From NCBI GenBank assembly GCA_005880985.1, contig VBIQ01000004.1, forward strand, positions 186,001-250,000: a DNA stretch of 64,000 nucleotides, read 5' to 3'. Positions 394 to 53,619 of the stretch are shown piece by piece. The notes below the pieces were generated by a model. The model ran no database searches, had not been told where the DNA came from, and saw only the letters and a program-made list of their open reading frames with translations. The stretch's first letter is position 1; each line of letters starts with the position of its first letter. A program made the translations under genes and the position numbers. The stretch comes from Chloroflexota bacterium (lineage in GTDB: Bacteria > Chloroflexota > Dormibacteria > Aeolococcales > Aeolococcaceae).

Positions 394-3252
394 TTAGCTA
401 CATCCGCTGGTTGCACCGCAGTTGAGGCACTTGTAGCAGGCACCGCTGCGGACCATCAGGCTGCCGCAGTCGGAGCACGAGGGCGCGTCCTCCTGGTTGA
501 GGAATGCCGCCGGTGCAGAGCGGCTGACCACGGGAAGCTCGGTTGTCGTCGGCAGCGCTGGGGGCGCCGACGCGCTCAGACGGGTGTCACGTTGGGGCTC
601 TTCACCCGCCTCGGTGCCGTCGCGGCGGATGATCCCGAGCGCGTCGCGATCCTCCCAGGGAAGGAAGCGCGACGCCAGCCAGCGGAAGATGTAGTCCATG
701 ATCGACTTGGCGATCGGAACCTCCGGGTTGCCGGTGAAACCCGAGGGCTCGAAGCGGGCGTGCGAGAACTTGTCGACCAGCGCCTTCAGGGGAACGCCGT
801 ACTGCAGCGCCAGGGAGATCGCGGTGGCGAAGGAGTCCATCAGGCCGCTGATGGTCGATCCCTCCTTGGCCATCTTGAGGAAGATCTCCCCGGGTGTCCC
901 GTCCTGGTAGAGCCCGACGGTGATGTACCCCTCATGCCCCGAGATCTCGAACTTGTGGGTGACCGCCTGCCGCTCCGCCGGCAGCCGCTTGCGCAGCGGG
1001 CGTTCGACCAGCTGCGTCCTGGCGACCACGCCGGTCGTCTTGTCCATGGTGGTGGCCATCGGCTGGCTGCGCTTGCTGCCGTCGCGGTAGATGGCGAGCG
1101 CCTTGAGTCCCAGCTTCCAGCCGTCGATGTAGGCCTGCTCGACCTCGTCGACGCTGGCGTCGGGCGGCATGTTCACCGTCTTCGAGATGGCGCCGCTGAG
1201 GAACGGCTGCACCGCGCTCATCATCCGGATGTGCCCCTGCCAGGCGATGCTGCGCATACCGCTGGCGGGCTTGAAGGCGCAGTCGAAGACCGCCAGGTCG
1301 TCCTCCCGAAGATGGGGGGCGCCTTCGATGGTGTCGTTCGCGTCGATGTAGGCGACGATGTCGTTGACCGCCGCCTCGCCATATCCCAGCCGGTGTAGCG
1401 CCTGTGGCACGGTCTGGTTGACGATCTTGAGCATGCCACCGCCGACCAGCTTCTTGTACTTCACCAGGGCGATGTCGGGCTCGACCCCGGTGGTGTCGCA
1501 GTCGAGCATGAAGCCGATGGTCCCGGTGGGCGCGAGCACGGTCGCCTGGCCGTTGCGGTAGCCGTGGACCGCGCCGAGCTCGTGCGCCTCGTCCCACGCC
1601 CGCCGCGCCGCGGTGATCAGGTCGGCCTCGACGTTGTCGGTGCCGATCCGGTAGGCGGCCTCGCGGTGCTTGCCGATCACTCGAAGCATCGGCTGGCGGT
1701 TGACGGCGTATCCGTTGAAGGGTCCGATCTCTCGGGCCATCCGGGCTGACTGCGCGTAGGCCTCACCGGTCATGATCGCGGTGAGGCAGCTGGCCACGTC
1801 TCGCCCCTGTGGCGAGTCGTAGGGGACGCCCCGCGCCATCAGCAGGGCGCCGAGATTGGCGTAGCCCAGCCCCAGCGGCCGGAAGTCCTCGCTGTTCTTG
1901 GCGATCTTGGGCGTCGGGTAGGAGGCGTTGCTGACCAGGATCTCCTGGGCGGTGATGGTGATCTGCACCGCGTGCCGGAAGCCTTCGACGTCGACGCTGC
2001 CGTCCTCGCGCAGGAACTTCATCAGGTTGAGCGAGGCGAGGTTGCAGGCGGTGTCGTCGAGAAACACGAATTCGCTGCAAGGGTTGCTGGCGTTGATGCG
2101 ACCGCTGTTCGCCGAGGTGTGCCAGTCGTTGATGGTGGTGTCGTACTGGATCCCCGGATCCCCACACTGCCACGCCGACTCCGCCATGCTGCGCAGCAGC
2201 TGGCGCGCCGGCAGCGCCTTGAGCAGCCGGCTGCGGTCGGTGACCGCCCGCAGCTGCCACTCCTTGTCCTCGAGTACCGCCCGCATGAAGTCGTCGGTGA
2301 CCCGCACCGAGTTGTTGCTGTTCTGGAAGAAGATCGAGCCGTAGGCCTCACCGGTGAAGACGCCGTCGTAGCCGGCATCGATCAGCGCCCAGGCCTTCCG
2401 CTCCTCGGTCACCTTGCAGGTGATGAACTCCTCGACGTCGGGGTGATCGACGTTGAGGATCACCATCTTGGCGGCGCGCCGGGTGGTTCCTCCGCTCTTG
2501 ATCACCCCGGCGAAGGCGTCGAAGCCCTTCATGAACGACACCGGCCCGCTGGCGATGCCGCCGCCGGCGAGCGCCTCCATCGAGGAGCGGATGGGAGACA
2601 GATTGGTGCCTGTGCCACTGCCGTACTTGAAGAGCATGCCCTCGGTGTGGGCCAGCGTGAGGATCGAGTCCATCGTGTCCTCGACGCTGTTGATGAAGCA
2701 CGCCGAGGCCTGCGGGCGCGTGCCCGGCACGCCGACGTTGAACCACACCGGGCTGTTGAAGCTCATCATCTGGTGGAGCACCAGGTGGGTGAGCTCGTCC
2801 TGGAACGACTGGGCGTCGGCCTCGGTGGCGAAGTAGCCGCCCTCGCGGCCCCAGCGGGCCACGGTGTCGCAGACGCGGGAGATCACCTGACGGACGCTGG
2901 TCTCGCGTCGAGGCGATCCCAGCGGGCCGCGGAAGTACTTGCTGACCACCACGTTGGTCGCCATCTGCGACCAGGCGGTGGGCACCTCGCACTCGCGCTG
3001 CTCGAAGACGGTCTCGCCCTTCTCGTTGGCGATGGTGGCGCTGCGCGGTTCCCAGGTCACCTCGTCGAAGGGGTGCACCCCGGCCCGGGTGAAGCGGCGC
3101 TCGATGGGCAGGCCGCGGCCGGGGGCGGCCCGGCCGGGGACGCTGATCTGGCCGGCCGCGGCCCGCCGCCGGGATCGCTTGCCGTTGCCTCCGGCCGAGG
3201 CGGCGTCCGAGGGATCGTCCGTTGGAGACGTGAAGGGGACTGGACTATCCAC
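394..3252 (-). CDS. nrdJ: Vitamin B12-dependent (class II) ribonucleoside-diphosphate reductase
   Basis: 952 aa; HQMMSFNSPVWFNVG, ACFINSVEDTMDSI, KYGSGTGTNLSPIRS, NASNPCSEFVFLDDTACNLASLNL; C-terminal CxxC zinc-ribbon CSDCGSLM...CYKCLNCG. Confidence 0.95.
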   Translation of the reverse strand: MDSPVPFTSPTDDPSDAASAGGNGKRSRRRAAAGQISVPGRAAPGRGLPIERRFTRAGVHPFDEVTWEPRSATIANEKGETVFEQRECEVPTAWSQMATNVVVSKYFRGPLGSPRRETSVRQVISRVCDTVARWGREGGYFATEADAQSFQDELTHLVLHQMMSFNSPVWFNVGVPGTRPQASACFINSVEDTMDSILTLAHTEGMLFKYGSGTGTNLSPIRSSMEALAGGGIASGPVSFMKGFDAFAGVIKSGGTTRRAAKMVILNVDHPDVEEFITCKVTEERKAWALIDAGYDGVFTGEAYGSIFFQNSNNSVRVTDDFMRAVLEDKEWQLRAVTDRSRLLKALPARQLLRSMAESAWQCGDPGIQYDTTINDWHTSANSGRINASNPCSEFVFLDDTACNLASLNLMKFLREDGSVDVEGFRHAVQITITAQEILVSNASYPTPKIAKNSEDFRPLGLGYANLGALLMARGVPYDSPQGRDVASCLTAIMTGEAYAQSARMAREIGPFNGYAVNRQPMLRVIGKHREAAYRIGTDNVEADLITAARRAWDEAHELGAVHGYRNGQATVLAPTGTIGFMLDCDTTGVEPDIALVKYKKLVGGGMLKIVNQTVPQALHRLGYGEAAVNDIVAYIDANDTIEGAPHLREDDLAVFDCAFKPASGMRSIAWQGHIRMMSAVQPFLSGAISKTVNMPPDASVDEVEQAYIDGWKLGLKALAIYRDGSKRSQPMATTMDKTTGVVARTQLVERPLRKRLPAERQAVTHKFEISGHEGYITVGLYQDGTPGEIFLKMAKEGSTISGLMDSFATAISLALQYGVPLKALVDKFSHARFEPSGFTGNPEVPIAKSIMDYIFRWLASRFLPWEDRDALGIIRRDGTEAGEEPQRDTRLSASAPPALPTTTELPVVSRSAPAAFLNQEDAPSCSDCGSLMVRSGACYKCLNCGATSGCS

Positions 3253-4524: not shown

Positions 4525-7500
4525 GTGAGCCCGGCCCCCGCGGACACCGTCACCGTCACCCTGCCGGAGATGGGGGAGTCGGTGACGGAGGGGATCGTCG
4601 TCGAGTGGCGCAAGCGCGCCGGCGACCGGGTCGCCGCCGGCGAGGTGATCGCCGAGGTCAGCACCGACAAGGTCGACGTCGAGGTCACCGCACCCGCCGC
4701 CGGGACCCTCTCGCGCATCGCCGTCGAGGCCGGGCAGACCGCCGGGGTCGGCGCCGTCCTGGCGGAGATCACTCCCGGACCACCCCCGGAAGACGGGTCC
4801 GGCCGCGCTGGCGAGACCACCGCGGACGCGCCCCCCGCGGCGCCCCCCACCCGGGCTGCGCCGCCCGTCCAGCCCGAGACACCCGTCACCGCTCGCACGC
4901 CGCCCGCCGCCCCCACCCCGGCGGCGGAGTCGCCGCCGGCCGCGCCCGCGCCCGCGGCCGCCCCGCCGGCGCGGCCCGAGGTGGCTGCGTCGCCGCTGGC
5001 CCGTCGCGCCGCCGCGCTCAGCGGGGTGGACCTGGCGACGGTGCGCGGGACCGGCCCCGGGGGGATGGTCACCCGGGCAGACGTCCTGGCGGCGGCGGCC
5101 TCGGGCAACGGCCGCGCCCAGGCCCGCGTTCCGCCGGCGCCGCCCGCCGCCGAGGCGGGCCGGCCGGCCGTGGTGAACCGCCCTCCGGCGGCGCCCCCGG
5201 CCGAGGGCACCACTCCGCTGCGCGGCCCGGCGGCGGCGCTGGCGGCGGCGATGGAGCAGAGCCGGGAGATCCCGACGGCGACCTCGTTCCGCACCGTCGA
5301 GGTCGACAGCCTCGCCGACCGGCGGCGGCAGCTCAACGACGCGCTGCGGCGCGCCGGCAGTCCCGAAAAGGTGTCGTTCACCCACCTGATCGGCTACGCG
5401 ATCGTCCGCGCCGCTCTCGACGTTCCCAGCATGTCGGCACACTTCGAGCGCGACGCCGACGGCAAGCCGGCGCGGGCGCAGCCGGGCATCCACCTCGGAC
5501 TGGCGGTCGACATCACCCGCAAGGACGGCAGCCGCTTCCTGGTGGTCCCGGTCATCCGCAACGCCGCCGAGCTCGACTTCGCCGCGTTCCGCAACGAGTA
5601 CGAGCGGCTGGTGGCCAAGGCACGCAACAACACGCTCACCGTCGACGAGCTGCGCGGTGCCAGCATCACCCTGACCAACCCCGGCGGTCTCGGCACGGTG
5701 GCCTCGGTGCCGCGGTTGATGCCGGGCCAGGGAACCATCGTCGCGGTCGGATCGATCGACTATCCGCCCGGACTCCGTTCGGTCGGTGAGGCACGCCTGC
5801 GCGACATGGGTGCGGCGCGGGTGATGACCATGACCAGCACCTACGACCACCGCGTCATCCAGGGGGCCGAGTCGGGCGAGTTCCTGGGCCGAATCGAGCA
5901 GCTGCTCGGGGGCGCCGACGGCTTCTACAGCTCCGTCTTCGAGTCGCTGGGACTGCCTGCCCCCAGCGGCGCCGCGCCGGTGCCGCAGCTGACCGGCGAG
6001 GCGGCGGCCCGGGTGCGTGACGCCGCTGCCGCAACGGGAGCGGCATCGCACGAGCTGCTCGCCGCCGTCGGTGCCGGCATGTCGCTGGTCAAGGCGCATC
6101 GCACCCACGGTCATCTGGGCGCTCATCTCGACCCGCTCGGAGCACCGCCGATCGGCGACCCGGCAATGGAGCCCTCGACGGTCGGCCTGACCCCAGCATT
6201 GATGGAGGCGGTTCCCGCCGACGTGCTTCGCGTCTACGTGTCTGGCCGCAACCTCGCCGAGGTGCTCCCCAACCTGCGGGCGACCTACTGCGGCACCATC
6301 GCCTACGAGCTCGAGCACCTCTCCAGCCACGAGCAGCGCGTCTGGCTGCGCGAGCACATCGAGTCCGGCGCCCACAGCACTCCCCTGTCGCCCGAGCGGC
6401 GTCTGGTGCTGCTGCAGCGGTTGACCAAGGTCGAGGCGATGGAGCGCTACCTGCGGCGCACGTTCCTGGGGCAGAAGACCTTCTCCATCGAAGGCCTCGA
6501 CGCGATGGTGCCGATGCTCGAGGAGCTGCTCTCCCTGGTTGCCGACGACGGCATCGACTCGGTGGTGATGGGCATGGCCCATCGCGGGCGGTTGGCGATT
6601 GTCGCCCATGTCGTCAACCGGCCCTATGAGTCCATCCTCGTCGCCTTCGAGCAGGGGGAACAGAAACGCCAACTGGGCGAGGGCGCCGACGACCCCACCG
6701 GTGACGTCAAGTACCACCTCGGCGCCACCGGCACCTACGTCACCGAGGCCGGCAGGCCGGTCACCGTGCGTCTGCTCAACAACCCCAGCCACCTCGAGGC
6801 CATCGACCCGGTGGTCGAGGGCTGGACCCGGGCCGAGCAGACACGCCGCAGCGCCGCCGAGCTGCACGTCGATCCCAAGGCGGCGATGCCGGTGCTCATC
6901 CACGGGGACGCCGCCTTTCCCGGCCAGGGCATCGTCGCCGAGGTGCTCAATCTGCAGGCGCTGCAGGGCTACAGCACCGGCGGCACCGTGCACATCATCG
7001 CCAACAACCAGGTCGGCTTCACCACCGAGGCGTGGGAGGCGCGCTCGACCCGCTACGCCAGCGACCTGGCGAAGGGTTTCGACAGCCCGATCATCCACGT
7101 CAACGCGGACGACATCGAGGCCTGCATCCACGCCATGCGGCTGGCCTACGACTACCGCCGCACCTACCATCGCGACGTCGTCGTCGACCTGGTCGGCTAC
7201 CGGCGCTTCGGCCACAACGAGACCGACGAGCCCGCGTACACCCAGCCCTTGATGTACGCCAAGATCCGCGAGCACCCGACTGCGCGGGACCTCTTCGCCG
7301 CCAAGCTGGTCACCGAGGGGCTGCTCAGCCGGGAGCAGGCCGACCGCCGCGCCCAGGAGGCGTTCGACCGCGTCGGCCAGGCGCATCAGCGGGTCAAGGC
7401 GTCGCTGGCCGCCGTCCCCAGCGAGCCGGGTGAACAGCAGATCCTGCTGCACGACATCGACGTGCGCACCGAGGTGGCGGCGGAGACCCTGGTCACCCTC

Positions 7501-8688
7501 AACGAGCAGCTGCTCAGCGTCCCCGAGGACTTCCACCTCAACCCCAAGCTGGGCCGGCAGATGGAGCGCCGCCGTGAGGCGGTGAAGGGTGGCGAGATCG
7601 ACTGGTCGACGGCGGAGTCGCTGGCGTTCGCCTCGCTGCTGCTGCAGGGGAGGCCGATCCGGCTGACCGGCCAGGACACCGAGCGCGGCACCTTCAGCCA
7701 GCGCCATCTCACCTTCCACGACGTCGAGAACGGCCGGGGCTACACTCCGATGCAGCACCTGGTGGGCGCCGCCGCCGCCTTCGAGCTGCACAACAGCCCG
7801 CTGAGCGAGGCGGGGGCGTTGGGTTTCGAGTACGGCTACAGCACCGCGACTCCCGAGACCCTGGTGCTGTGGGAGGCGCAGTACGGCGACTTCGTCAACA
7901 ACGCCGAGGTCGTCGTCGACCAGTTCATCGCCTCGGGTCAGGCGAAATGGGGGGTCCGTTCACGGCTGACGCTGCTGCTCCCTCACGGCTTCGAGGGCTC
8001 GGGGCCCGAGCATTCCAGCGCGCGCCTGGAGCGCTTCCTGCAGCTCTCCGCCCAGGGCAACATGCGGGTCGCCAACCCCTCGACCGCGGCCCAGTACTTC
8101 CATCTGCTGCGTCAGCAGGCGCTGGTCAACGAGGCCCGGCCGCTGGTGATCATGACCCCCAAGAGCATGCTGCGGTCGCGCGATGCCGCCTCGCCGATGA
8201 GCGACCTGGCCGGTGGGCGCTTCCAGCCGGTGATCGACGACCCGGTCGCGGGGCGCGAGCGCAAGGCGATCACCACCATGCTGCTCTGCAGCGGCAAGAT
8301 CTACTACGAGCTGCAGAACCACTCGCTGCGCAAGGAGCTCGACAACCTGGCCATCGCCCGGATCGAGTGCCTCGATCCCATCCCCATCGAGCCGGTGCTC
8401 AACCTGATCAAGAGCTACCCGAACCTGCGCCAGGTTTTCTGGGTGCAGGAGGAGCCCAAGAACATGGGCGCCTGGCCGCACCTGGCGCGGCCGATCGGCA
8501 AGCGCCGGCCATACGAGATCCACTGGGACTACGTCGGCCGGCCGCGCCGGGCCAGTCCCAGTGAAGGCTTCCGCGGCGCCCACCTGGTCGAGCAGGAGCG
8601 GATCATCACCACCGCGCTGACCATCGCCAAGGCGGGCAGCGACGCCATCGCCGACGCGCTGGTGGCCAGCCTCAGCAAATCGCTGTGA
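4525..8688 (+). CDS. kgd: Multifunctional 2-oxoglutarate dehydrogenase: lipoyl domain + peripheral-subunit-binding domain + E2 succinyltransferase + E1 (KGD/OdhA-type fusion)
   Basis: Lipoyl motif EVSTDKVDVEV; PSBD ASPLARRAAALSGVDLATVRGTGPGGMVTRADVL; E2 motif TSTYDHRVIQGAESGEFLG; E1 motifs GMAHRGRLAIVAHV, NNQVGFTT, RRFGHNETDEPAYTQP, FEYGYS. Confidence 0.95.
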   Translation: MSPAPADTVTVTLPEMGESVTEGIVVEWRKRAGDRVAAGEVIAEVSTDKVDVEVTAPAAGTLSRIAVEAGQTAGVGAVLAEITPGPPPEDGSGRAGETTADAPPAAPPTRAAPPVQPETPVTARTPPAAPTPAAESPPAAPAPAAAPPARPEVAASPLARRAAALSGVDLATVRGTGPGGMVTRADVLAAAASGNGRAQARVPPAPPAAEAGRPAVVNRPPAAPPAEGTTPLRGPAAALAAAMEQSREIPTATSFRTVEVDSLADRRRQLNDALRRAGSPEKVSFTHLIGYAIVRAALDVPSMSAHFERDADGKPARAQPGIHLGLAVDITRKDGSRFLVVPVIRNAAELDFAAFRNEYERLVAKARNNTLTVDELRGASITLTNPGGLGTVASVPRLMPGQGTIVAVGSIDYPPGLRSVGEARLRDMGAARVMTMTSTYDHRVIQGAESGEFLGRIEQLLGGADGFYSSVFESLGLPAPSGAAPVPQLTGEAAARVRDAAAATGAASHELLAAVGAGMSLVKAHRTHGHLGAHLDPLGAPPIGDPAMEPSTVGLTPALMEAVPADVLRVYVSGRNLAEVLPNLRATYCGTIAYELEHLSSHEQRVWLREHIESGAHSTPLSPERRLVLLQRLTKVEAMERYLRRTFLGQKTFSIEGLDAMVPMLEELLSLVADDGIDSVVMGMAHRGRLAIVAHVVNRPYESILVAFEQGEQKRQLGEGADDPTGDVKYHLGATGTYVTEAGRPVTVRLLNNPSHLEAIDPVVEGWTRAEQTRRSAAELHVDPKAAMPVLIHGDAAFPGQGIVAEVLNLQALQGYSTGGTVHIIANNQVGFTTEAWEARSTRYASDLAKGFDSPIIHVNADDIEACIHAMRLAYDYRRTYHRDVVVDLVGYRRFGHNETDEPAYTQPLMYAKIREHPTARDLFAAKLVTEGLLSREQADRRAQEAFDRVGQAHQRVKASLAAVPSEPGEQQILLHDIDVRTEVAAETLVTLNEQLLSVPEDFHLNPKLGRQMERRREAVKGGEIDWSTAESLAFASLLLQGRPIRLTGQDTERGTFSQRHLTFHDVENGRGYTPMQHLVGAAAAFELHNSPLSEAGALGFEYGYSTATPETLVLWEAQYGDFVNNAEVVVDQFIASGQAKWGVRSRLTLLLPHGFEGSGPEHSSARLERFLQLSAQGNMRVANPSTAAQYFHLLRQQALVNEARPLVIMTPKSMLRSRDAASPMSDLAGGRFQPVIDDPVAGRERKAITTMLLCSGKIYYELQNHSLRKELDNLAIARIECLDPIPIEPVLNLIKSYPNLRQVFWVQEEPKNMGAWPHLARPIGKRRPYEIHWDYVGRPRRASPSEGFRGAHLVEQERIITTALTIAKAGSDAIADALVASLSKSL

Positions 8689-10085
8689 GCGAGGCTCAGG
8701 CGGACGGCGCGTCCTCGCGGCCCAGGGTGGTGGTGCTCGGCGGCGGTCCCGCCGGGGATGTCGCCGCCCTGCGCGGGGCGCAGCTGGGCGCCCGGGTCAC
8801 CCTGATCGAGCGCGCCGAGCTCGGCGGCACCTGTCTCAACTGGGGATGCATCCCCACCAAATCGCTGCTCGCCGCCGCCGACCTGCTGCGCAGGATCAAG
8901 CTGAGCGACGAGTTCGGGATCGAGGTCGGGGAGGTGAAGGTCAATTTCCCGCGCATGATGGAGCGCAAGGAGGAGGTGGTCCTCGCCATGCGGCGCGGCG
9001 TCGAGGCCGCCTGCAAGCGCAAGAAGGTCGAGGTGCTCAGGGAGCACGGCGTCATCGAAGATGGCGCGGTGGTCGCCGGCGGTCGCAGCCTTGCCTACGA
9101 CCATCTGGTGGTCTGCGTCGGCACCGAGGCGTACGGGCTCCCCGGCGTCGACATGGACCACCCCAGCGTGGTCACCTCCAACGGCATCCTCCGGCTGGAG
9201 CGCATCCCCGAGCGGCTGCTGATCATCGGTGGTGGCGTCATCGGCTGCGAGTTCGCCAGCCTCTTTGCTCCGCTGGGGACGCGGACCACGGTGGTGGAGG
9301 TGCTGCCGCAGATCCTCGCCGGGGTCGACTCCCGCATCGTCGCCCAGTTCCGCAAGCTGATGGAGGCGCAGGGCATCACCTTCCTCACCGGCCGCACGCT
9401 GGCGAAGGTCACCGAGTACCGTGCCGACGACCTCAGCGTCGAGCTCGACGACGGCACCGCGATCGACTGCGACGTGATGCTGATCAGCATCGGCCGCCAG
9501 GCGCAGACCCGTGGCATCGGACTGGAGTCGATCGGGGTGGAGCTCACCGAGCAGGGGCACATCGTGGTCGACGACATGCTGCAGACCGCAAACCCGCGGA
9601 TCTGGGCGGCCGGCGACTGTATCGGCGGGCACCAGCTCGCCCATCTCGCCAGCAAGGAGGCGGAACGCGCGGTCGAGAACGCGCTCGGACATCACCCCCG
9701 GGCCATCGACCGGACGGTGGTGCCGTCGTGCATCTACACCCACCCGGAAATTGCCATGGTCGGCCTCAACAGCGAGACCGCGAAGCAGGTCGCCGGCGAG
9801 GTCAAGACCGGGCAGGCGCGCTTCCTCGGCAACGGCAAGGCGCTCGGTGAGGGGGAGCCCGACGGGGTGGCCCTGCTGGTGGCCGACAAGCAGACCGATC
9901 AGCTGCTCGGCGCGACCATCATGGGAGCGCACGCGGTGGAGATCATCCACGAGATCGGCGTCGCCATCTCCGACGGGCTGACCATGGCCGAGCTGGGCGA
10001 CATCATCCACGCCCACCCCACCGTCAGCGAGCTGGTGATGGACGCCAACCAGCAGGGCGAAGGCATCGCCCCGTATCTGTCGTAG
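8685..10085 (+). CDS. lpdA: Dihydrolipoyl dehydrogenase (E3)
   Basis: VLGGGPAGDVAALRGAQLGARVTLIERAELGGTCLNWGCIPTKSLL; C-terminal HAHPTVSE. GTGA overlap with the E2-E1 gene. Confidence 0.95.
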   Translation: MSEAQADGASSRPRVVVLGGGPAGDVAALRGAQLGARVTLIERAELGGTCLNWGCIPTKSLLAAADLLRRIKLSDEFGIEVGEVKVNFPRMMERKEEVVLAMRRGVEAACKRKKVEVLREHGVIEDGAVVAGGRSLAYDHLVVCVGTEAYGLPGVDMDHPSVVTSNGILRLERIPERLLIIGGGVIGCEFASLFAPLGTRTTVVEVLPQILAGVDSRIVAQFRKLMEAQGITFLTGRTLAKVTEYRADDLSVELDDGTAIDCDVMLISIGRQAQTRGIGLESIGVELTEQGHIVVDDMLQTANPRIWAAGDCIGGHQLAHLASKEAERAVENALGHHPRAIDRTVVPSCIYTHPEIAMVGLNSETAKQVAGEVKTGQARFLGNGKALGEGEPDGVALLVADKQTDQLLGATIMGAHAVEIIHEIGVAISDGLTMAELGDIIHAHPTVSELVMDANQQGEGIAPYLS

Positions 10086-24273: not shown

Positions 24274-24486
24274 CTACTCGACGATGGCGACCGTCTGGCC
24301 CTCCTGGACCACGTCCCCCTCCTTGACCAGGATCTCCTTGACGGTGCCGTTGACCGGGCTGGTCACCGGGATCTCCATCTTCATCGACTCGAGGATCATC
24401 AGCGTGTCGTCCTCCTCCACCTGCTGGCCGACCACGGTCACGATCTTCCACAGGTTGCCGACAAGTTCCGCCTTGACCTCGGTCAT
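24274..24486 (-). CDS. Stand-alone biotin carboxyl carrier (biotinyl) domain protein
   Basis: 70 aa; ESMKMEIP biotinylation motif. Confidence 0.9.
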   Translation of the reverse strand: MTEVKAELVGNLWKIVTVVGQQVEEDDTLMILESMKMEIPVTSPVNGTVKEILVKEGDVVQEGQTVAIVE

Positions 24487-24504: not shown

Positions 24505-26181
24505 TCAGACGGGGCTGACCCCGTGCTTGCGCCACGGCCGCTGGAGTTGCTTGCTGTCCGCCGCCTCCAGCGCGTCGATGATCACCCGCCGGGTGTCGGC
24601 GGGATCGATCACGTCGTCGACCATGGCCCACGACGCCGCCACGTAGGGGTCGATGGTGGCACGGATCGTCTCCACGTACTTGGCCCGTTCCGCCTCCGGG
24701 TCCTCGGCGGCAGCGATCTGCTTGTTGAAGATGATGTTGACCGCTCCCTCGGGCCCCATCACCGAGATCTCCGCGGTCGGCCAGGCGACCAGGGTGTCGG
24801 GCTGGTAGCCGCGGCCGCACATCACGAAATATCCAGCGCCGTACGCCTTGCGCATTACCACCGTCACCTTGGGCACGGTGGCCTCGCTGACGGCGTAGAG
24901 CATCTTGGCGCCGTGGCGGATGATCCCCTGTCTCTCCACCTCGGTGCCGACGATGAAGCCCGGCACGTCCTGCAGAAACAGCAGGGGGACGTTGAAGGCG
25001 TCGCAGAAGGTGATGAAGCGAGCCGCCTTGTCGGCGGCGTCGACGTCGAGGGCGCCTCCCTTGACCATCGGCTGGCTGGCGACCATGCCGCATGAACGAC
25101 CGCCCAGGTGGCCGAAGCCGGTGACCAGGTTGCGGGCCCAGGTCGGTTTGATCTCGAACCAGTGGCCGTCGTCGACCAACCGCTTGATCACCTTGCGCAT
25201 GTCGTAGGCGGCCCGCGGGTTGGCGGGGACGATCTTGGCGATATCGTCGATGCGGCGGTCGCGGGGGTCCTCGGTGGGGCGGAGCGGCGGCTTCTCGCTG
25301 TTGTTGAGCGGGATGTAGGAGAGGAAATCGCGCACCGACCGCAGGCAAGCCTCGTCATCCTCGACCTCGAGGTCGCCGACGCCCGAGACGTAGCAGTGGA
25401 TCTGGCTGCCACCCATCTCGTGGTCGGTGGTGTCCTCGCCGGTGGCAGCCTTGACCAGGCGGGCACCGCCCAGTGACATGCTGCTGGTGCCCTTCACCAT
25501 GGGAACGAAGTCGGCCAGTCCGGGGATGTACGCCGTGCCCGCGGCGCATGGTCCCATCATTGCCGCGATTTGCGGCACCACCCCGCTCATCAGCACCTGC
25601 TCGTAGAAGAGAGCACCACTTCCCGCGAAGGTGCTCCCCGCCGCCTCCTGGATGCGCGCTCCGGCGGAGTCCAGCAGCCAGATCATCGGCCGGCGATTGA
25701 GCAACGCCTTGTGACGCAGGCGGGCGACCTTCTGCTCACCGATCATCCCCATCGACCCGGCCATCACGGTGAAGTCGTACGCGGCGCAGTAGACGCGCCG
25801 GCCGTCGATCAACCCCTCACCCGTGATCACGCCGTCGGCGGGCGTGCGATCCGGTTGGGTCTCGGCGACATGCAGCGAGTGCTGATGCGCCAGTAGGCCG
25901 AACTCGAGAAAACTGCCGGGATCGAAGAGGCGTTCGATCCGCTCGCGGGCGGTGAGCTTGCTCCGCGAGTGCTGCTTGGCGATCGGCTCCTCACCGCCCA
26001 TGGCGAGGTACTTCTCTCGCCGCCGTTGCAACTGCTCGGTGAGCTCGGGCAGGGTGGTGCTGCTCGCGGCGGGCGGCGCTCCGGCGGCCGCGGTCCCGGG
26101 GCTGTAGGTCGCCGCCGGCTTGGCCCCTGACGGCGGCGCCTGGGGCGCCGCCGGCGGGTGCGTGGAGCTGTCGTCGGCCAT
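24505..26181 (-). CDS. Acyl-CoA carboxylase carboxyltransferase subunit (PccB/MccB-like)
   Basis: LTARERIERLFDPGSFLE, DSAGARIQEAA, QDVPGFIVG, AYGAGYFVMCGRG, MGPEGAVNIIF. Confidence 0.93.
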   Translation of the reverse strand: MADDSSTHPPAAPQAPPSGAKPAATYSPGTAAAGAPPAASSTTLPELTEQLQRRREKYLAMGGEEPIAKQHSRSKLTARERIERLFDPGSFLEFGLLAHQHSLHVAETQPDRTPADGVITGEGLIDGRRVYCAAYDFTVMAGSMGMIGEQKVARLRHKALLNRRPMIWLLDSAGARIQEAAGSTFAGSGALFYEQVLMSGVVPQIAAMMGPCAAGTAYIPGLADFVPMVKGTSSMSLGGARLVKAATGEDTTDHEMGGSQIHCYVSGVGDLEVEDDEACLRSVRDFLSYIPLNNSEKPPLRPTEDPRDRRIDDIAKIVPANPRAAYDMRKVIKRLVDDGHWFEIKPTWARNLVTGFGHLGGRSCGMVASQPMVKGGALDVDAADKAARFITFCDAFNVPLLFLQDVPGFIVGTEVERQGIIRHGAKMLYAVSEATVPKVTVVMRKAYGAGYFVMCGRGYQPDTLVAWPTAEISVMGPEGAVNIIFNKQIAAAEDPEAERAKYVETIRATIDPYVAASWAMVDDVIDPADTRRVIIDALEAADSKQLQRPWRKHGVSPV

Positions 26182-26185
26182 CGGG

Positions 26186-26977
26186 TCACCGTCCTTTGAA
26201 GTGAGGGTCGCGCTTCTGGAGGAAGGCCGTCACGCCCTCGACCGCGTCCTCGGTCAGGGTCACCAGGGTGAGCTGCGTCTGCAGGTAACGCAAGGCCGTC
26301 TCGTACCCGAGGGAGTCGATGGCGAAGAAGGCATCGCGTCCCAGACGTGTGATCAGCGGGCTCTTGGTGGTGAGCGTACGCGCCAGGGCCTGCGCCGTCG
26401 CGCGCACCTCGTCCTGCGGCACCACCCGGTTGACCAGTCCCCAGGCGTGGGCGGTGTCGGCGTCGATGCGATCGCCGAGGAGCATCAGCTCCATCGCCCG
26501 TTTGCGCGAGAGGTTGCGGGTGATCAGGGCCATGATCATCATCGGCCACAACCCGACGTTGATCTCCGGGGTGCCGAAGGTCGCGTTCTCGGCGGCCACC
26601 AGCAGATCGCAGGCGAGGGCCAGCCCGAAGCCCCCGGCGAGGGCATGGCCGTTGACGCACCCCACCACCGGTTTGCCCAGCCGCTGGATGGCGAGGAACA
26701 TGTCGACGAACCCGCCGCGCCCGAGGTGCTTCTCCACCTCGGTGGCCTCGCCGCCGAAGCCGCCGAGGTCGGCACCGGCGCAGAACGCCTTGTCGCCGGC
26801 ACCGGTGATCACCGCCACCCGCACCGCGTCGTCGGCCCGGGCCGTCTCCAACCCGGCGAGAATGCCGCGGAGCATGTCAGCGCTGAGCGGGTTGCGTTGC
26901 TCGGGCCGGTTGAGGGTGATCCAGGCCACCTGCTCGCGCACCTCGTAGAGCGCGTGGGCCGGTTGCTGGTCGCTCAT
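26186..26977 (-). CDS. Enoyl-CoA hydratase/isomerase family protein
   Basis: ITLNRPEQRNPLS, AFCAGADL, GHALAGGFGLALACDLLVAAENATFGTPEINVGLWP. Confidence 0.92.
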   Translation of the reverse strand: MSDQQPAHALYEVREQVAWITLNRPEQRNPLSADMLRGILAGLETARADDAVRVAVITGAGDKAFCAGADLGGFGGEATEVEKHLGRGGFVDMFLAIQRLGKPVVGCVNGHALAGGFGLALACDLLVAAENATFGTPEINVGLWPMMIMALITRNLSRKRAMELMLLGDRIDADTAHAWGLVNRVVPQDEVRATAQALARTLTTKSPLITRLGRDAFFAIDSLGYETALRYLQTQLTLVTLTEDAVEGVTAFLQKRDPHFKGR

Positions 26978-28344
26978 GCGCTCGTCGCTTGCTGGGCGCG
27001 TGGGGGCGGCCCGATCTCCGCCAGGAGTGCGGTGGTGTACTCGCCGCTGGTGAACGGCTCCGAGGCGAGCACGTGGCGGTGCAGCGTCAGGTTGGTCTTC
27101 ACGCCCTCGATGCGGAAGCCGTCGAGCGCCGCCAGGGCGCGGCCGATGGCGGTGGGCCGGTCCGATCCGTGCACCACCAGCTTGGCGAGCAGCGGGTCGT
27201 AGAAGTGGGGCACGGCGCTGCCGGCAGCCACCCCCGCGTCGACGCGAACGCCTTCGCCCTCGGGCTCCTGGTATTCGGTGATCGTCCCCGGCGACGGGAG
27301 CATCCGCACCGGGTCCTCGGCGTAGATACGCATCTCGATGGCATGTCCGCGGCTGATGACGTCGCGCTGCTCCATGTCGAGGGGTTGACCGGCGGCGATC
27401 CGCAGCTGCTGCCGGACCAGATCGACACCGGTGCAGAGCTCGGTGATCGGATGCTCCACCTGGAGGCGGGTGTTCATCTCCAGGAAATAGAAGTTGCGCC
27501 TCGCATCGACGATGAACTCCACTGTGCCGGCACTGATGTAGCCGATCGACCGCGCCGCCAGCACCGCGGCGGCGGTCATCCGCCGCCGCAGGATGGCATC
27601 GAGTGCGCAGGAAGGCGTCTCCTCGAGCAGCTTCTGGTGGCGGCGTTGCACGCTGCACTCGCGCTCGCCGAGGTGGATCACCGAGCCGTCGGAGTCGGCG
27701 AGCACCTGCACCTCGACGTGCCGCGGACCGTCGAGAAAGCGCTCCAGGAAGACGGTGCCATCACCGAAGGCGGCCTGGGCGCGCTGGCGAGCGGTGGCCA
27801 CCGCTGTCCGCAACGTCTCGGGGTCGTCGACGCGCTGCATGCCGATGCCGCCGCCGCCGGCACTGGCCTTGACCATCAGCGGGAAGCCGAGCGCCTCCCC
27901 CTCGGCCACCGAGTCGCCGTCATCGGCGAGCGGACCGTCGGTGCCGGGGACCACCGGGACGCCGAGCTCCGCCATCATCGTCCGCGCGCTCAGCTTGCTG
28001 CCCATCGCCTCGATGACATCGGAGGGAGGGCCGATCCAGGCCAATCCCTCTTCCTCCACGGCGCGGGCGAAGGCTGCGTTCTCGGAGAGAAACCCGTAGC
28101 CGGGATGGAGGGAGTCGGCACCACTGTCACGCGCCGCCTGCAACAGTGCCTCGACGCTGAGGTACGAGTCCGCCGCCGGCCCCGGGCCGATCAGCAGCGC
28201 CGTGTCGGCTTCGGCGACGAACGGGGCGGCTGCGTCGACGTCGGAATGGACCGCGATGGCTTCAATGCCCTCGTCGTGACACGCGCGGATCACCCTCCGA
28301 GCGATCTCACCGCGGTTCGCCACCAGCACACGGCGCAGCGGCAT
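26974..28344 (-). CDS. Acyl-CoA carboxylase biotin carboxylase subunit
   Basis: VLVANRGEIARRVIRACHDEGIEAIAVHSDVD, HPGYGFLSENAAFA, LGERECSVQRRHQKLLEETPS, FLEMNTRLQVEHPITE. Confidence 0.95.
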   Translation of the reverse strand: MPLRRVLVANRGEIARRVIRACHDEGIEAIAVHSDVDAAAPFVAEADTALLIGPGPAADSYLSVEALLQAARDSGADSLHPGYGFLSENAAFARAVEEEGLAWIGPPSDVIEAMGSKLSARTMMAELGVPVVPGTDGPLADDGDSVAEGEALGFPLMVKASAGGGGIGMQRVDDPETLRTAVATARQRAQAAFGDGTVFLERFLDGPRHVEVQVLADSDGSVIHLGERECSVQRRHQKLLEETPSCALDAILRRRMTAAAVLAARSIGYISAGTVEFIVDARRNFYFLEMNTRLQVEHPITELCTGVDLVRQQLRIAAGQPLDMEQRDVISRGHAIEMRIYAEDPVRMLPSPGTITEYQEPEGEGVRVDAGVAAGSAVPHFYDPLLAKLVVHGSDRPTAIGRALAALDGFRIEGVKTNLTLHRHVLASEPFTSGEYTTALLAEIGPPPRAQQATSA

Positions 28345-51767: not shown

Positions 51768-52850
51768 TCAGGCCGCGCCGGCGGCGATGGTCTCCTCCAC
51801 CTGGGCCCGGCGCTCGCTGTCGAAGGTCTCGGCGATGTTCTCGTCGTCGGCCATCACCCGATCGAGCTCGACGTCGGCGAAGCCCAGCACCCCCATGTCG
51901 GCGAAGGCGGCGCGGATCCGGTCGCCGAAGATGCCCACGTCCTTGAGGGTGGGGACGATCCGGGTGAAGAGCATGCTGCGGAAGAGCTTGTGGGATTCGC
52001 TGTTCTGCACGAACTCGATCGCCTCGTCGTAGTCGACGTAGTCCTCGAGGTTGTGCCACATCTCCTCGGCGAGGAAGCGGTCGCGCATCAGATAGCAGGC
52101 CTCGACGCAGAACTCCTCGCGCTCGTCACGCTCCTTCTGGGTCAGCTCCGGGTAGTAGTCGCGCAGCGCCAGCCGTCCGAAGGCGACGTGCCGGGACTCG
52201 TCCTGCATGACGTAGGCGTTGATGGCCCGTCCCAGGGGATCCTGGGCGATGTCGCGGATCATCCCGAAGGCGGCCAGGGCGAGCCCTTCGATCAGGACCT
52301 GCATGCCCAGGTAGGTCATGTCCCAGCGCGAATCGGCGATGACGTCGTCGAGCAGTGCCTTCAGGTGGGGATTGATGGGATACGCGAGCTGGATCTTCTC
52401 GTGCAGGTAGCGTGAATAGGCCTCGACGTGCCGGGCCTCGTCCATCACCTGGGTGGCGGCGTAGAACTTGCTGTCGATGTCGGGAACGGTCTGGACGATC
52501 TTGCTGGCGCAGATCAGTGCGCCCTGCTCGCCGTGGAGGAACTGGGAGAACTGCCAGGCGACGCCGTGGCGACGCATCACCCCGCGCGCCTTCTCGTCCA
52601 TTCGCTCCCAGCTGCGCGACCCATAGATGGGTACGTATTCCTCCGGCCCCTTGAGTGGGTCCTCGAGGTCGATCTCGTGCGACCAGTCGATGCGCTCGGT
52701 GGCGTTCCACTGGCGCGTCTTGCCCTTCTCGTAGAGGTTGAGCAGCTTGTCCCGCCCCTCGTCGTACTCCCAGTTGAAGACGGTCGTGTTGCCGCCGGCA
52801 ACCTCCCATTTGGTCTGCTCGACGGGCAATGCGTAGGCGCGGGTGCTCAC
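51768..52850 (-). CDS. Ferritin-like diiron protein (RNR R2-like fold)
   Basis: HGEQGALICASKIV, VMDEARHVEAYSRYLHEK, VLIEGLALAAFGMIRD, VMQDESRHVAFGRLAL: two DE-x-RH motifs plus additional Glu ligands. Confidence 0.82.
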   Translation of the reverse strand: MSTRAYALPVEQTKWEVAGGNTTVFNWEYDEGRDKLLNLYEKGKTRQWNATERIDWSHEIDLEDPLKGPEEYVPIYGSRSWERMDEKARGVMRRHGVAWQFSQFLHGEQGALICASKIVQTVPDIDSKFYAATQVMDEARHVEAYSRYLHEKIQLAYPINPHLKALLDDVIADSRWDMTYLGMQVLIEGLALAAFGMIRDIAQDPLGRAINAYVMQDESRHVAFGRLALRDYYPELTQKERDEREEFCVEACYLMRDRFLAEEMWHNLEDYVDYDEAIEFVQNSESHKLFRSMLFTRIVPTLKDVGIFGDRIRAAFADMGVLGFADVELDRVMADDENIAETFDSERRAQVEETIAAGAA

Positions 52851-52872
52851 GAGTGATCCTCTCCTTGTGGTC

Positions 52873-53619
52873 TCACGCGGGTATTGCGGGTACTGGTTGT
52901 TCCTGTTGGTCGGTCATGGCCACCTCATCGGTCGCCGAGCGACCCTCGAGGGCACGGGTGATGTCGCGCTGCAGGGCCCGCTGATGCAGCAGCACGAAGA
53001 GCTCGTTGGCGAGCGGCAGTCCGACGCGGATGAGGTCGCGCAGGGTCTCCGGCCGGTGCCGGCCCAGGGCCGGCTCGATGATGCGCACCGCCTCGTCCTG
53101 CACCAGGCGCTCGACGGCGTCGCGGTAGAGGGCGAGGTTGTCGATGTTGAAGCCGGCCTGCTCGGTGAAACCGGCGGCCCGCATCGCTGCCACCAGCTCC
53201 AGGACGCGCACCTCCGAGGAGGTTGGATGGTCGGGGTCAGCGATCAGCTCCAGCGCCTGCAGCGCCGCGAGATCGTGGGGCCCGAGACGCTCGCGCACCC
53301 GCGCCAGCTCGTCGGCCGACGCGGCCGGATCGGGTTCCTCGAGCAGGCTGCCCAGCGCCTGGAGGGAGCGGATCTCGTCGAGGGGCAGCTGTCCCCAGCG
53401 GTTGAGGACCCAGCGGATGGTGCGCAGCGGCAGGTGCAGCTCGGCCTGTAGCGATCGGATCCAGAGGATCCGCTCGACGGTCCCGGCGCGATAGAGGGCC
53501 TGGTTGCTGGCGGTCTTGCGGGGTCGGGGGAGGAGGCCTTGCTGGGTGTAGAAGTGGATGGTGGGGGCCGGCGTCCCGCTGAGACGCACCAGATCGCGCA
53601 TCCGGTGGGGGTGGGTCAC
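52873..53619 (-). CDS. MerR-family transcriptional regulator
   Basis: MRDLVRLSGTPAPTIHFYTQQGLLPRPRKTASNQALYRAGTVERILWIRSLQAELHLPLRTIRWVL. Confidence 0.83.
   Translation of the reverse strand: MTHPHRMRDLVRLSGTPAPTIHFYTQQGLLPRPRKTASNQALYRAGTVERILWIRSLQAELHLPLRTIRWVLNRWGQLPLDEIRSLQALGSLLEEPDPAASADELARVRERLGPHDLAALQALELIADPDHPTSSEVRVLELVAAMRAAGFTEQAGFNIDNLALYRDAVERLVQDEAVRIIEPALGRHRPETLRDLIRVGLPLANELFVLLHQRALQRDITRALEGRSATDEVAMTDQQEQPVPAIPA

What the first reader, a model, noticed from the sequence alone, without database searches (positions are those of the whole stretch)
4525..8688. Single polypeptide with lipoyl domain + PSBD + E2 + 2-oxoglutarate dehydrogenase E1
The known actinobacterial KGD/OdhA fusions join an E2 catalytic domain to E1 but lack a lipoyl domain and depend on a separate lipoylated E2. 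Here the ORF starts with a complete lipoyl domain (EVSTDKVDVEV). An Ala/Pro linker, a PSBD, the E2 core with DHRVIQG and a full E1 follow in one 1387-aa frame. The lipoyl swinging arm, E2 and E1 active sites would sit on one chain, which suggests a self-contained or differently assembled complex.
Basis: partly seen in the sequence, partly recalled or inferred. Interest (0 to 1): 0.75.

Follow-up and report, generated by a model that had tools for sequence, protein, structure and literature searches.

The report
Self-armed fused 2-oxoglutarate dehydrogenase
A soil bacterium's key citric-acid-cycle enzyme carries its own chemical swinging arm on the same chain as two catalytic parts, unlike the well-studied tuberculosis-family version that must borrow the arm from another enzyme; this layout proves to be a widespread but apparently undescribed branch of that enzyme family.

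Summary
Window 4525-8688 (+) encodes one 1387-aa chain: lipoyl domain, peripheral subunit-binding domain (PSBD), E2 succinyltransferase, complete 2-oxoglutarate dehydrogenase E1. The E3 gene (8685-10085) overlaps it by 4 nt, so two genes encode a whole complex. It is not an artefact or a one-off: 62 fetched fusions have the same plan with one or two lipoyl domains, in Dormibacterota, Eremiobacterota and Thermoleophilia, including cultured Solirubrobacter and Conexibacter. In 10 of 10 such genomes tested it is the only such E1. These fusions form one clade apart from lipoyl-less OdhA/KGD (one long-branch row left out), and their lipoyl-PSBD modules are also one clade. They share with OdhA the E2 insertion helix that joins its hexamer, but lack the SucA N-terminal helical peptide that non-lipoyl fusions carry. 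Best reading: an OdhA-type enzyme whose N-terminal docking peptide was replaced by a lipoyl-PSBD module, restoring an arm and E3 docking in cis. Assembly, lipoylation and activity are untested. I found no description in the papers available. New variant of a known kind.

The parts
4525..8688 (+). lipoyl-PSBD-E2o-E1o fusion, 1387 aa, the 2-oxoglutarate dehydrogenase
   Evidence: single ORF; Pfam and NCBIfam domains
4552..4770 (+). lipoyl domain (residues 10-82), lipoyl lysine K49 at 4669-4671
   Evidence: Biotin_lipoyl 2.2e-20; DK motif in all lipoyl domains of the related fusions
4771..4980 (+). Ala/Pro-rich flexible linker (residues 83-152)
   Evidence: sequence composition; lies between the two Pfam domains
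4981..5088 (+). peripheral subunit-binding domain (residues 153-188), predicted E3 docking site
   Evidence: E3_binding 4.5e-12
5203..5907 (+). E2 succinyltransferase catalytic domain (residues 227-461), catalytic H442, succinate-binding positions S254 and Y440 conserved
   Evidence: 2-oxoacid_dh 6e-47; alignment with MsKGD; E2 alignment
5764..5808 (+). OdhA-type E2 insertion helix (about residues 414-428; L417 and M428 at the positions of OdhA Phe291 and Leu302)
   Evidence: shared with Actinomycetes/Acidobacteria fusions, absent from most Gemmatimonadota/Chloroflexota fusions and from standalone E2s; helix at 422-427 in the predicted model
6055..8619 (+). E1 2-oxoglutarate dehydrogenase part (residues 511-1365), ThDP enzyme
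   Evidence: E1_dh, Transket_pyr, OxoGdeHyase_C; TIGR00239 and NF006914 above cut-off; model matches MsKGD SucA domain, TMt 0.91
8685..10085 (+). lpd, dihydrolipoyl dehydrogenase (E3), 466 aa, overlaps the fusion gene by 4 nt (GTGA)
   Evidence: TIGR01350 470 bits, cut-off 408.8; overlap read directly; adjacency conserved in 20 of 58 lipoyl loci

Best explanation
This is the cell's only 2-oxoglutarate dehydrogenase: an OdhA/KGD-type E2o-E1o fusion whose N-terminal SucA-type docking peptide has been replaced by a lipoyl-PSBD module. E1 decarboxylates 2-oxoglutarate on ThDP and succinylates the lipoyl group on K49 of the same (or a neighbouring) chain. The arm, on a roughly 70-residue Ala/Pro linker, carries the succinyl group to the E2 domain, which makes succinyl-CoA. 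The dihydrolipoyl group is re-oxidised by the co-encoded E3, held by the PSBD. Because the OdhA-specific E2 insertion helix is kept, the core is probably an OdhA-like hexamer (two E2 trimers, three E1 dimers) bearing six arms, independent of the other E2 of the cell. Shown by sequence: domains, active-site residues, operon, single clade, exclusivity of lipoyl-PSBD versus SucA-N peptide, two separate E3 genes in the genome. Inferred: lipoylation, E3 binding by the PSBD, hexamer, independence from the other E2.
For: Domains in one frame. All lipoyl domains of the fusions keep the DK motif. Own genome has lipA, only one other E2, and two lpd genes above cut-off: one in an E1-E2-lipA operon, one overlapping this gene. 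One OxoGdeHyase_C per genome in 10 of 10 lipoyl-type genomes and in the window's own genome. lpd immediately downstream in 20 of 58 lipoyl loci versus 0 of 31 non-lipoyl fusions (Fisher p 8e-5, rows not independent). Lipoyl fusions one side of a branch, 95/90; lipoyl+PSBD one clade, 97/94. SucA-N peptide in nearly all non-lipoyl fusions and standalone SucA, in none of the lipoyl fusions; the matching human E1o region is reported to bind E2o and E3 (PMC8146983) and the OdhA/KGD N-terminal hairpin is proposed to bind partners (PMC10415282). Insertion helix shared with OdhA. Model's best PDB matches are OdhA and KGD.
Against: No biochemical data. In Dormibacteria family f2, Eremiobacterota and most Solirubrobacterales lpd is not adjacent. 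Superposition of the E2-E1 model on OdhA is poor (rmsd about 27 A, TM 0.66; E1 alone about 3.3 A), so the interdomain arrangement is not confirmed. OdhA F291 and L302 are L417 and M428 here, and Solirubrobacteraceae have a shortened insertion. The E1-only tree puts classical actinobacterial E1 with proteobacterial SucA, so the history of E1 is unresolved. The window genome also encodes a second lipoyl-bearing E2 that could still serve in trans.
Confidence: 0.75

Rival explanations
1. The lipoyl domain is an accessory: the enzyme still works in a mixed PDH(BCKDH)/ODH supercomplex and takes most of its lipoyl groups from the other E2, as OdhA does with AceF.
For: The genome keeps a second, lipoyl-bearing E2; described OdhA enzymes work this way.
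Against: Lipoyl lysine and PSBD are kept in all intact lipoyl fusions across several phyla, a second lipoyl domain is present in many, each complex in the window genome has its own E3, and the N-terminal peptide thought to dock partners is gone.
Confidence: 0.15
2. The fusion makes a canonical cubic 24-mer E2 core with E1 attached in cis, a self-contained classical ODH rather than an OdhA-like hexamer.
For: The N-terminal half has the classical E2 layout lipoyl-PSBD-E2.
Against: E1 is fused where the E2 C-terminal helix would make trimer-trimer contacts, and the OdhA-specific insertion helix is present; OdhA with the same features is a hexamer (PMC10415282).
Confidence: 0.07
3. The complex acts on another 2-oxoacid (for example 2-oxoadipate) rather than 2-oxoglutarate.
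For: E1o-family enzymes can accept 2-oxoadipate in other organisms (general knowledge).
Against: It is the only OxoGdeHyase_C protein in each genome tested, scores above cut-off for 2-oxoglutarate dehydrogenase equivalogs, and keeps the OdhA succinate-binding Ser and Tyr positions.
Confidence: 0.03
4. On the origin: the lipoyl form is the ancestral fusion (whole SucB joined to SucA) and the lipoyl-less OdhA forms lost the arm, rather than the lipoyl form being derived. This does not compete with the mechanism above, only with the history.
For: Standalone SucB has lipoyl-PSBD-E2, so a simple gene fusion would give this order; the root of the E2 tree lies on a long branch.
Against: Non-lipoyl fusions keep the SucA N-terminal peptide at their own N-terminus, which a SucB-SucA end-to-end fusion would have lost; the rooted E2 tree puts the lipoyl clade inside non-lipoyl groups; the lipoyl-PSBD modules group, weakly, with PDH/BCKDH-type rather than SucB-type E2s (86/73).
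Confidence: 0.25

Closest known systems
OdhA of Corynebacterium glutamicum / KGD of Mycobacterium smegmatis (E2o-E1o two-in-one enzyme)
   Same: Fused E2o-E1o order, OdhA-specific E2 insertion helix, conserved E1 and E2 active-site blocks, about 40% identity, best PDB matches by sequence and fold
   Different: Carries its own lipoyl domain and PSBD, lacks the SucA-type N-terminal helical peptide, E3 gene overlapping
Lipoyl-less fusions of Gemmatimonadota and Chloroflexota
   Same: Fused E2o-E1o, close in the E1 and E2+E1 trees
   Different: No lipoyl or PSBD; most have the SucA-N peptide and no insertion helix
Classical SucA + SucB + Lpd (E. coli, Bacillus)
   Same: All reaction modules present: lipoyl, PSBD, E2o, E1o, E3
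   Different: There E1 and E2 are separate genes, E2 forms a cubic core, and SucA keeps its N-terminal peptide

Membership tests
OdhA/KGD two-in-one 2-oxoglutarate dehydrogenase | E2 succinyltransferase and E1o on one chain, E2 first | tested here: met
   NF008907 1442 bits, cut-off 878
OdhA/KGD two-in-one 2-oxoglutarate dehydrogenase | OdhA-specific insertion helix in E2 | tested here: met
   ungapped alignment with MsKGD in this region
OdhA/KGD two-in-one 2-oxoglutarate dehydrogenase | no lipoyl domain; lipoyl groups supplied in trans by E2p | tested here: not met
   Biotin_lipoyl 10-82 with K49
OdhA/KGD two-in-one 2-oxoglutarate dehydrogenase | N-terminal SucA-type helical hairpin | tested here: not met
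   no hit in any lipoyl fusion, the window's included
OdhA/KGD two-in-one 2-oxoglutarate dehydrogenase | homohexamer of about 0.8 MDa | not testable with these tools
   single-chain model only; interdomain arrangement not reproduced
OdhA/KGD two-in-one 2-oxoglutarate dehydrogenase | acetyl-CoA activation and inhibition by OdhI/GarA | not tested
   residues and FHA partner were not examined
OdhA/KGD two-in-one 2-oxoglutarate dehydrogenase | co-occurs with an E2p carrying a Phe-containing three-residue C-terminal insertion | tested here: inconclusive
   the C6 E2 C-terminus aligns without a gap to canonical E2s and has no Phe there, but the segment is short
Self-contained 2-oxoacid dehydrogenase complex | lipoyl domain, PSBD, E2, E1 and a dedicated E3 encoded together | tested here: met
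Self-contained 2-oxoacid dehydrogenase complex | lipoylation and E3 binding in cis, activity without another E2 | not testable with these tools
   needs protein

The most novel reading that the evidence does not exclude
A third architecture of 2-oxoglutarate dehydrogenase: an OdhA-type hexamer that regained its own swinging arms by swapping the SucA docking peptide for a lipoyl-PSBD module, making a two-gene, E2p-independent ODH that is the standard form in Thermoleophilia, Dormibacterota and Eremiobacterota.
Probability: 0.55. Interest if true: 0.65.

Novelty: new variant of a known kind. Interest (0 to 1): 0.52.

Why it matters
OdhA/KGD is the textbook exception among 2-oxoacid dehydrogenases: it needs another complex's lipoyl groups, and how E2p arms reach its sites is stated to be an open question (PMC10415282). 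A natural OdhA-type core with arms attached in cis lets that question be tested directly: compare cis-arm and trans-arm enzymes, and ask whether the hexamer alone is compatible with channelling. The swap of SucA-N peptide for PSBD also gives a natural test of the idea that the E1o N-terminal segment is an E3/E2 docking device (PMC8146983). It also widens the view that fused OdhA-like enzymes are a signature of class Actinobacteria with borrowed lipoyl groups.

Tried and rejected
Assembly or reading-frame artefact: rejected, same one-frame architecture in dozens of independent contigs. Rarity: rejected. The Biotin_lipoyl hit at window 24283-24453 as another lipoyl carrier: rejected, it has ESMKME and sits beside carboxyltransferase and biotin carboxylase genes, so it is a biotin carrier. 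E1-only tree as guide to history: not used for the root, because long branches meet and the outgroup is split. First concatenated tree needed two changes because of the long row L057; without that row one change. Structure model as proof of OdhA-like domain arrangement: not supported. Protein-query searches of whole genomes failed with machine errors, so Pfam-family queries were used. The PNAS 2021 paper on actinobacterial E2p is not in the held library. Literature searches for a lipoyl-bearing OdhA gave nothing.
Full report
WHAT IS THERE. The frame 4525-8688 (+) is a single gene of 1387 codons with a GTG start. Pfam finds, in order and each above its curated cut-off, Biotin_lipoyl (10-82), E3_binding (153-188), 2-oxoacid_dh (227-461), E1_dh, Transket_pyr and OxoGdeHyase_C (to 1365). 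NCBI's equivalog for the known fused enzyme (NF008907) scores 1442 bits against a cut-off of 878 but begins at residue 114, so the lipoyl domain is not part of the described family model. The closest solved proteins are KGD and OdhA, aligned from about residue 200-240 onward. The stop codon of the fusion overlaps the GTG of an lpd (E3) gene (CTGTGAGC), which scores above cut-off for dihydrolipoyl dehydrogenase. Two genes therefore encode every part of a 2-oxoglutarate dehydrogenase complex.

THE GENOME. The window lies in a 3.3 Mb, 93% complete assembly. Its nearest named relatives are Dormiibacterota and 'Chloroflexi' soil MAGs, so it is most likely a member of Dormibacterota (inference). Two E2 proteins were found: this one and a 483-aa lipoyl-bearing E2 behind E1 alpha/beta-type genes on contig C6. 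That second operon has its own lpd upstream and lipA downstream. Only two lpd genes pass the cut-off, one per complex. The window genome has one OxoGdeHyase_C protein.

HOW COMMON. A scan of one genome per species gave 80 relatives, the maximum returned out of 593 confirmed. Domain models built here show two kinds: fusions with one or two lipoyl domains plus PSBD, and fusions with neither. The lipoyl kind occurs in Dormibacterota, Eremiobacterota and Thermoleophilia (Solirubrobacterales, Miltoncostaea and relatives), including cultured Solirubrobacter deserti and Conexibacter sp. S30A1. The non-lipoyl kind occurs in Actinomycetes, Acidobacteriota, Gemmatimonadota, other Chloroflexota and a planctomycete. 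In the window's own class, 35 of 61 genomes have the E1 C-terminal domain; of 20 more loci fetched, 19 are lipoyl fusions and one is cut at a contig end just at its PSBD. In all, 62 fetched fusions have lipoyl domains (36 with two, 26 with one) and 35 have none, a few of these being contig-end fragments. In 10 of 10 lipoyl-type genomes the fusion is the only 2-oxoglutarate dehydrogenase E1. All lipoyl domains in the fusions keep the DK motif (the one hit without it belongs to an unrelated neighbouring biotin protein).

WHAT SETS THE LIPOYL FORM APART. (a) Non-lipoyl fusions, like standalone SucA, begin with a peptide of the form NxWLVEEMYxxFxxDPxSVDxxW. A model of it hits nearly all non-lipoyl fusions and standalone SucAs with E of about 1e-6 or better and no lipoyl fusion (the model was built from the non-lipoyl set, so the positive half is by construction and the negative half is the test). 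A few Chloroflexota fusions have neither module. In human E1o the corresponding segment (YVEEM...LENPKSVHKSWDIF) is reported to bind both E2o and E3 (PMC8146983), and the N-terminal helical hairpin of KGD/OdhA is proposed to contact other components (PMC10415282). So the lipoyl-PSBD module stands where another docking device stood. (b) lpd lies immediately downstream in 20 of 58 lipoyl loci with enough flank, and in 0 of 31 non-lipoyl fusions (Fisher p 8e-5; related rows, so only indicative). (c) The E2 insertion that forms the OdhA hexamer contact helix is present in the lipoyl clade and in Actinomycetes/Acidobacteriota, and absent from standalone E2s and from nearly all Gemmatimonadota/Chloroflexota fusions (33 versus 47 residues in the spanned motif; 43 in Solirubrobacteraceae; L047 is an exception with 47). 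The model puts a helix there.

HISTORY. On E2+E1 together, the lipoyl fusions are one side of a branch (95/90) when the very long row L057 is left out; with it, a quick tree needed two changes. The E2 tree, rooted on standalone E2s, places them inside non-lipoyl groups, sister to the Actinomycetes/Acidobacteriota fusions (support 91-94). The lipoyl+PSBD segments themselves form one clade (97/94), L057 included, nearer PDH/BCKDH-type than SucB-type E2s but weakly (86/73). Together with the SucA-N argument this favours one replacement event: an OdhA-type enzyme that depended on arms in trans gained its own. The reverse, an ancestral lipoyl fusion with later losses, is not excluded because the root lies on a long branch. 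The E1 tree groups classical actinobacterial E1 with proteobacterial SucA; I could not explain this.

MECHANISM. Shown: the modules, their order, conserved catalytic blocks, E2 residues equivalent to OdhA Ser129, Tyr314 and His316 (S254, Y440, H442; and residue numbers in PMC10415282; the match of Ser129 to the PTATS serine rests on my own count), and the co-encoded E3. Inferred: lipoylation of K49, shuttling of the arm between E1 and E2 over the Ala/Pro linker, E3 docking at the PSBD, and a hexameric core. The AlphaFold model of residues 222-1387 (mean pLDDT 84) finds OdhA and KGD first in the PDB, with the E1 part within about 3.3 A, but the E2-E1 arrangement does not superpose (rmsd about 27 A), so hexamer architecture is not demonstrated.

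KNOWN OR NEW. Described OdhA/KGD enzymes depend on lipoyl groups from E2p (PMC10415282, PMC10581250, PMC8146983). Six full-text searches found no account of a lipoyl-bearing fusion, but the held library lacks most subscription papers, including the 2021 PNAS survey. The sequences are public, so the novelty is in recognition, distribution and the module swap, not in an unseen protein. Verdict: real, widespread, a new variant of a known kind.

Noticed in passing
L007, L010, L013-L016, L020-L030, L034-L041, L044, L046, L063, L065, L168-L175: Most Thermoleophilia and one Dormibacterota family carry two tandem lipoyl domains in the fusion, a stronger version of the finding than the window's own.
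   Followed up: partly
E1 tree, L069-L077, L125, L182, L183: The E1 domain of classical Actinomycetes/Acidobacteriota fusions groups with proteobacterial SucA, in conflict with the E2 tree; possible fission, replacement or long-branch effect.
   Followed up: no
L055-L060, L064: Some Chloroflexota fusions seem to have neither lipoyl-PSBD nor the SucA-N peptide.
   Followed up: no
L022, L030, L050, L024, L060, L018: Public MAG records titled Bifidobacterium breve, Chlamydiae, Cellulomonas and Acidobacteria carry fusions that cluster with Thermoleophilia or Chloroflexota; titles are probably wrong or the contigs are contaminants.
   Followed up: no
L045:8203-8205: An in-frame stop lies inside the E1 part of the lipoyl fusion in one Thermoleophilaceae MAG; sequencing error or pseudogene.
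   Followed up: no
window 24274-24486 (-), with 24505-26181 and 26974-28344: A 70-aa stand-alone biotin carrier with carboxyltransferase and biotin carboxylase genes: probably a three-gene acyl-CoA carboxylase.
   Followed up: partly
window 394-3252 (-): Class II (B12-dependent) ribonucleotide reductase with C-terminal TSCPD domain.
   Followed up: no
window 51768-53619 (-): AurF-like diiron N-oxygenase family protein next to a MerR regulator.
   Followed up: no
G000:C6:66137-74557 (L123, L214, L216): Second 2-oxoacid dehydrogenase operon of the genome: lpd, E1 alpha/beta type, E2, with lipA downstream.
   Followed up: partly
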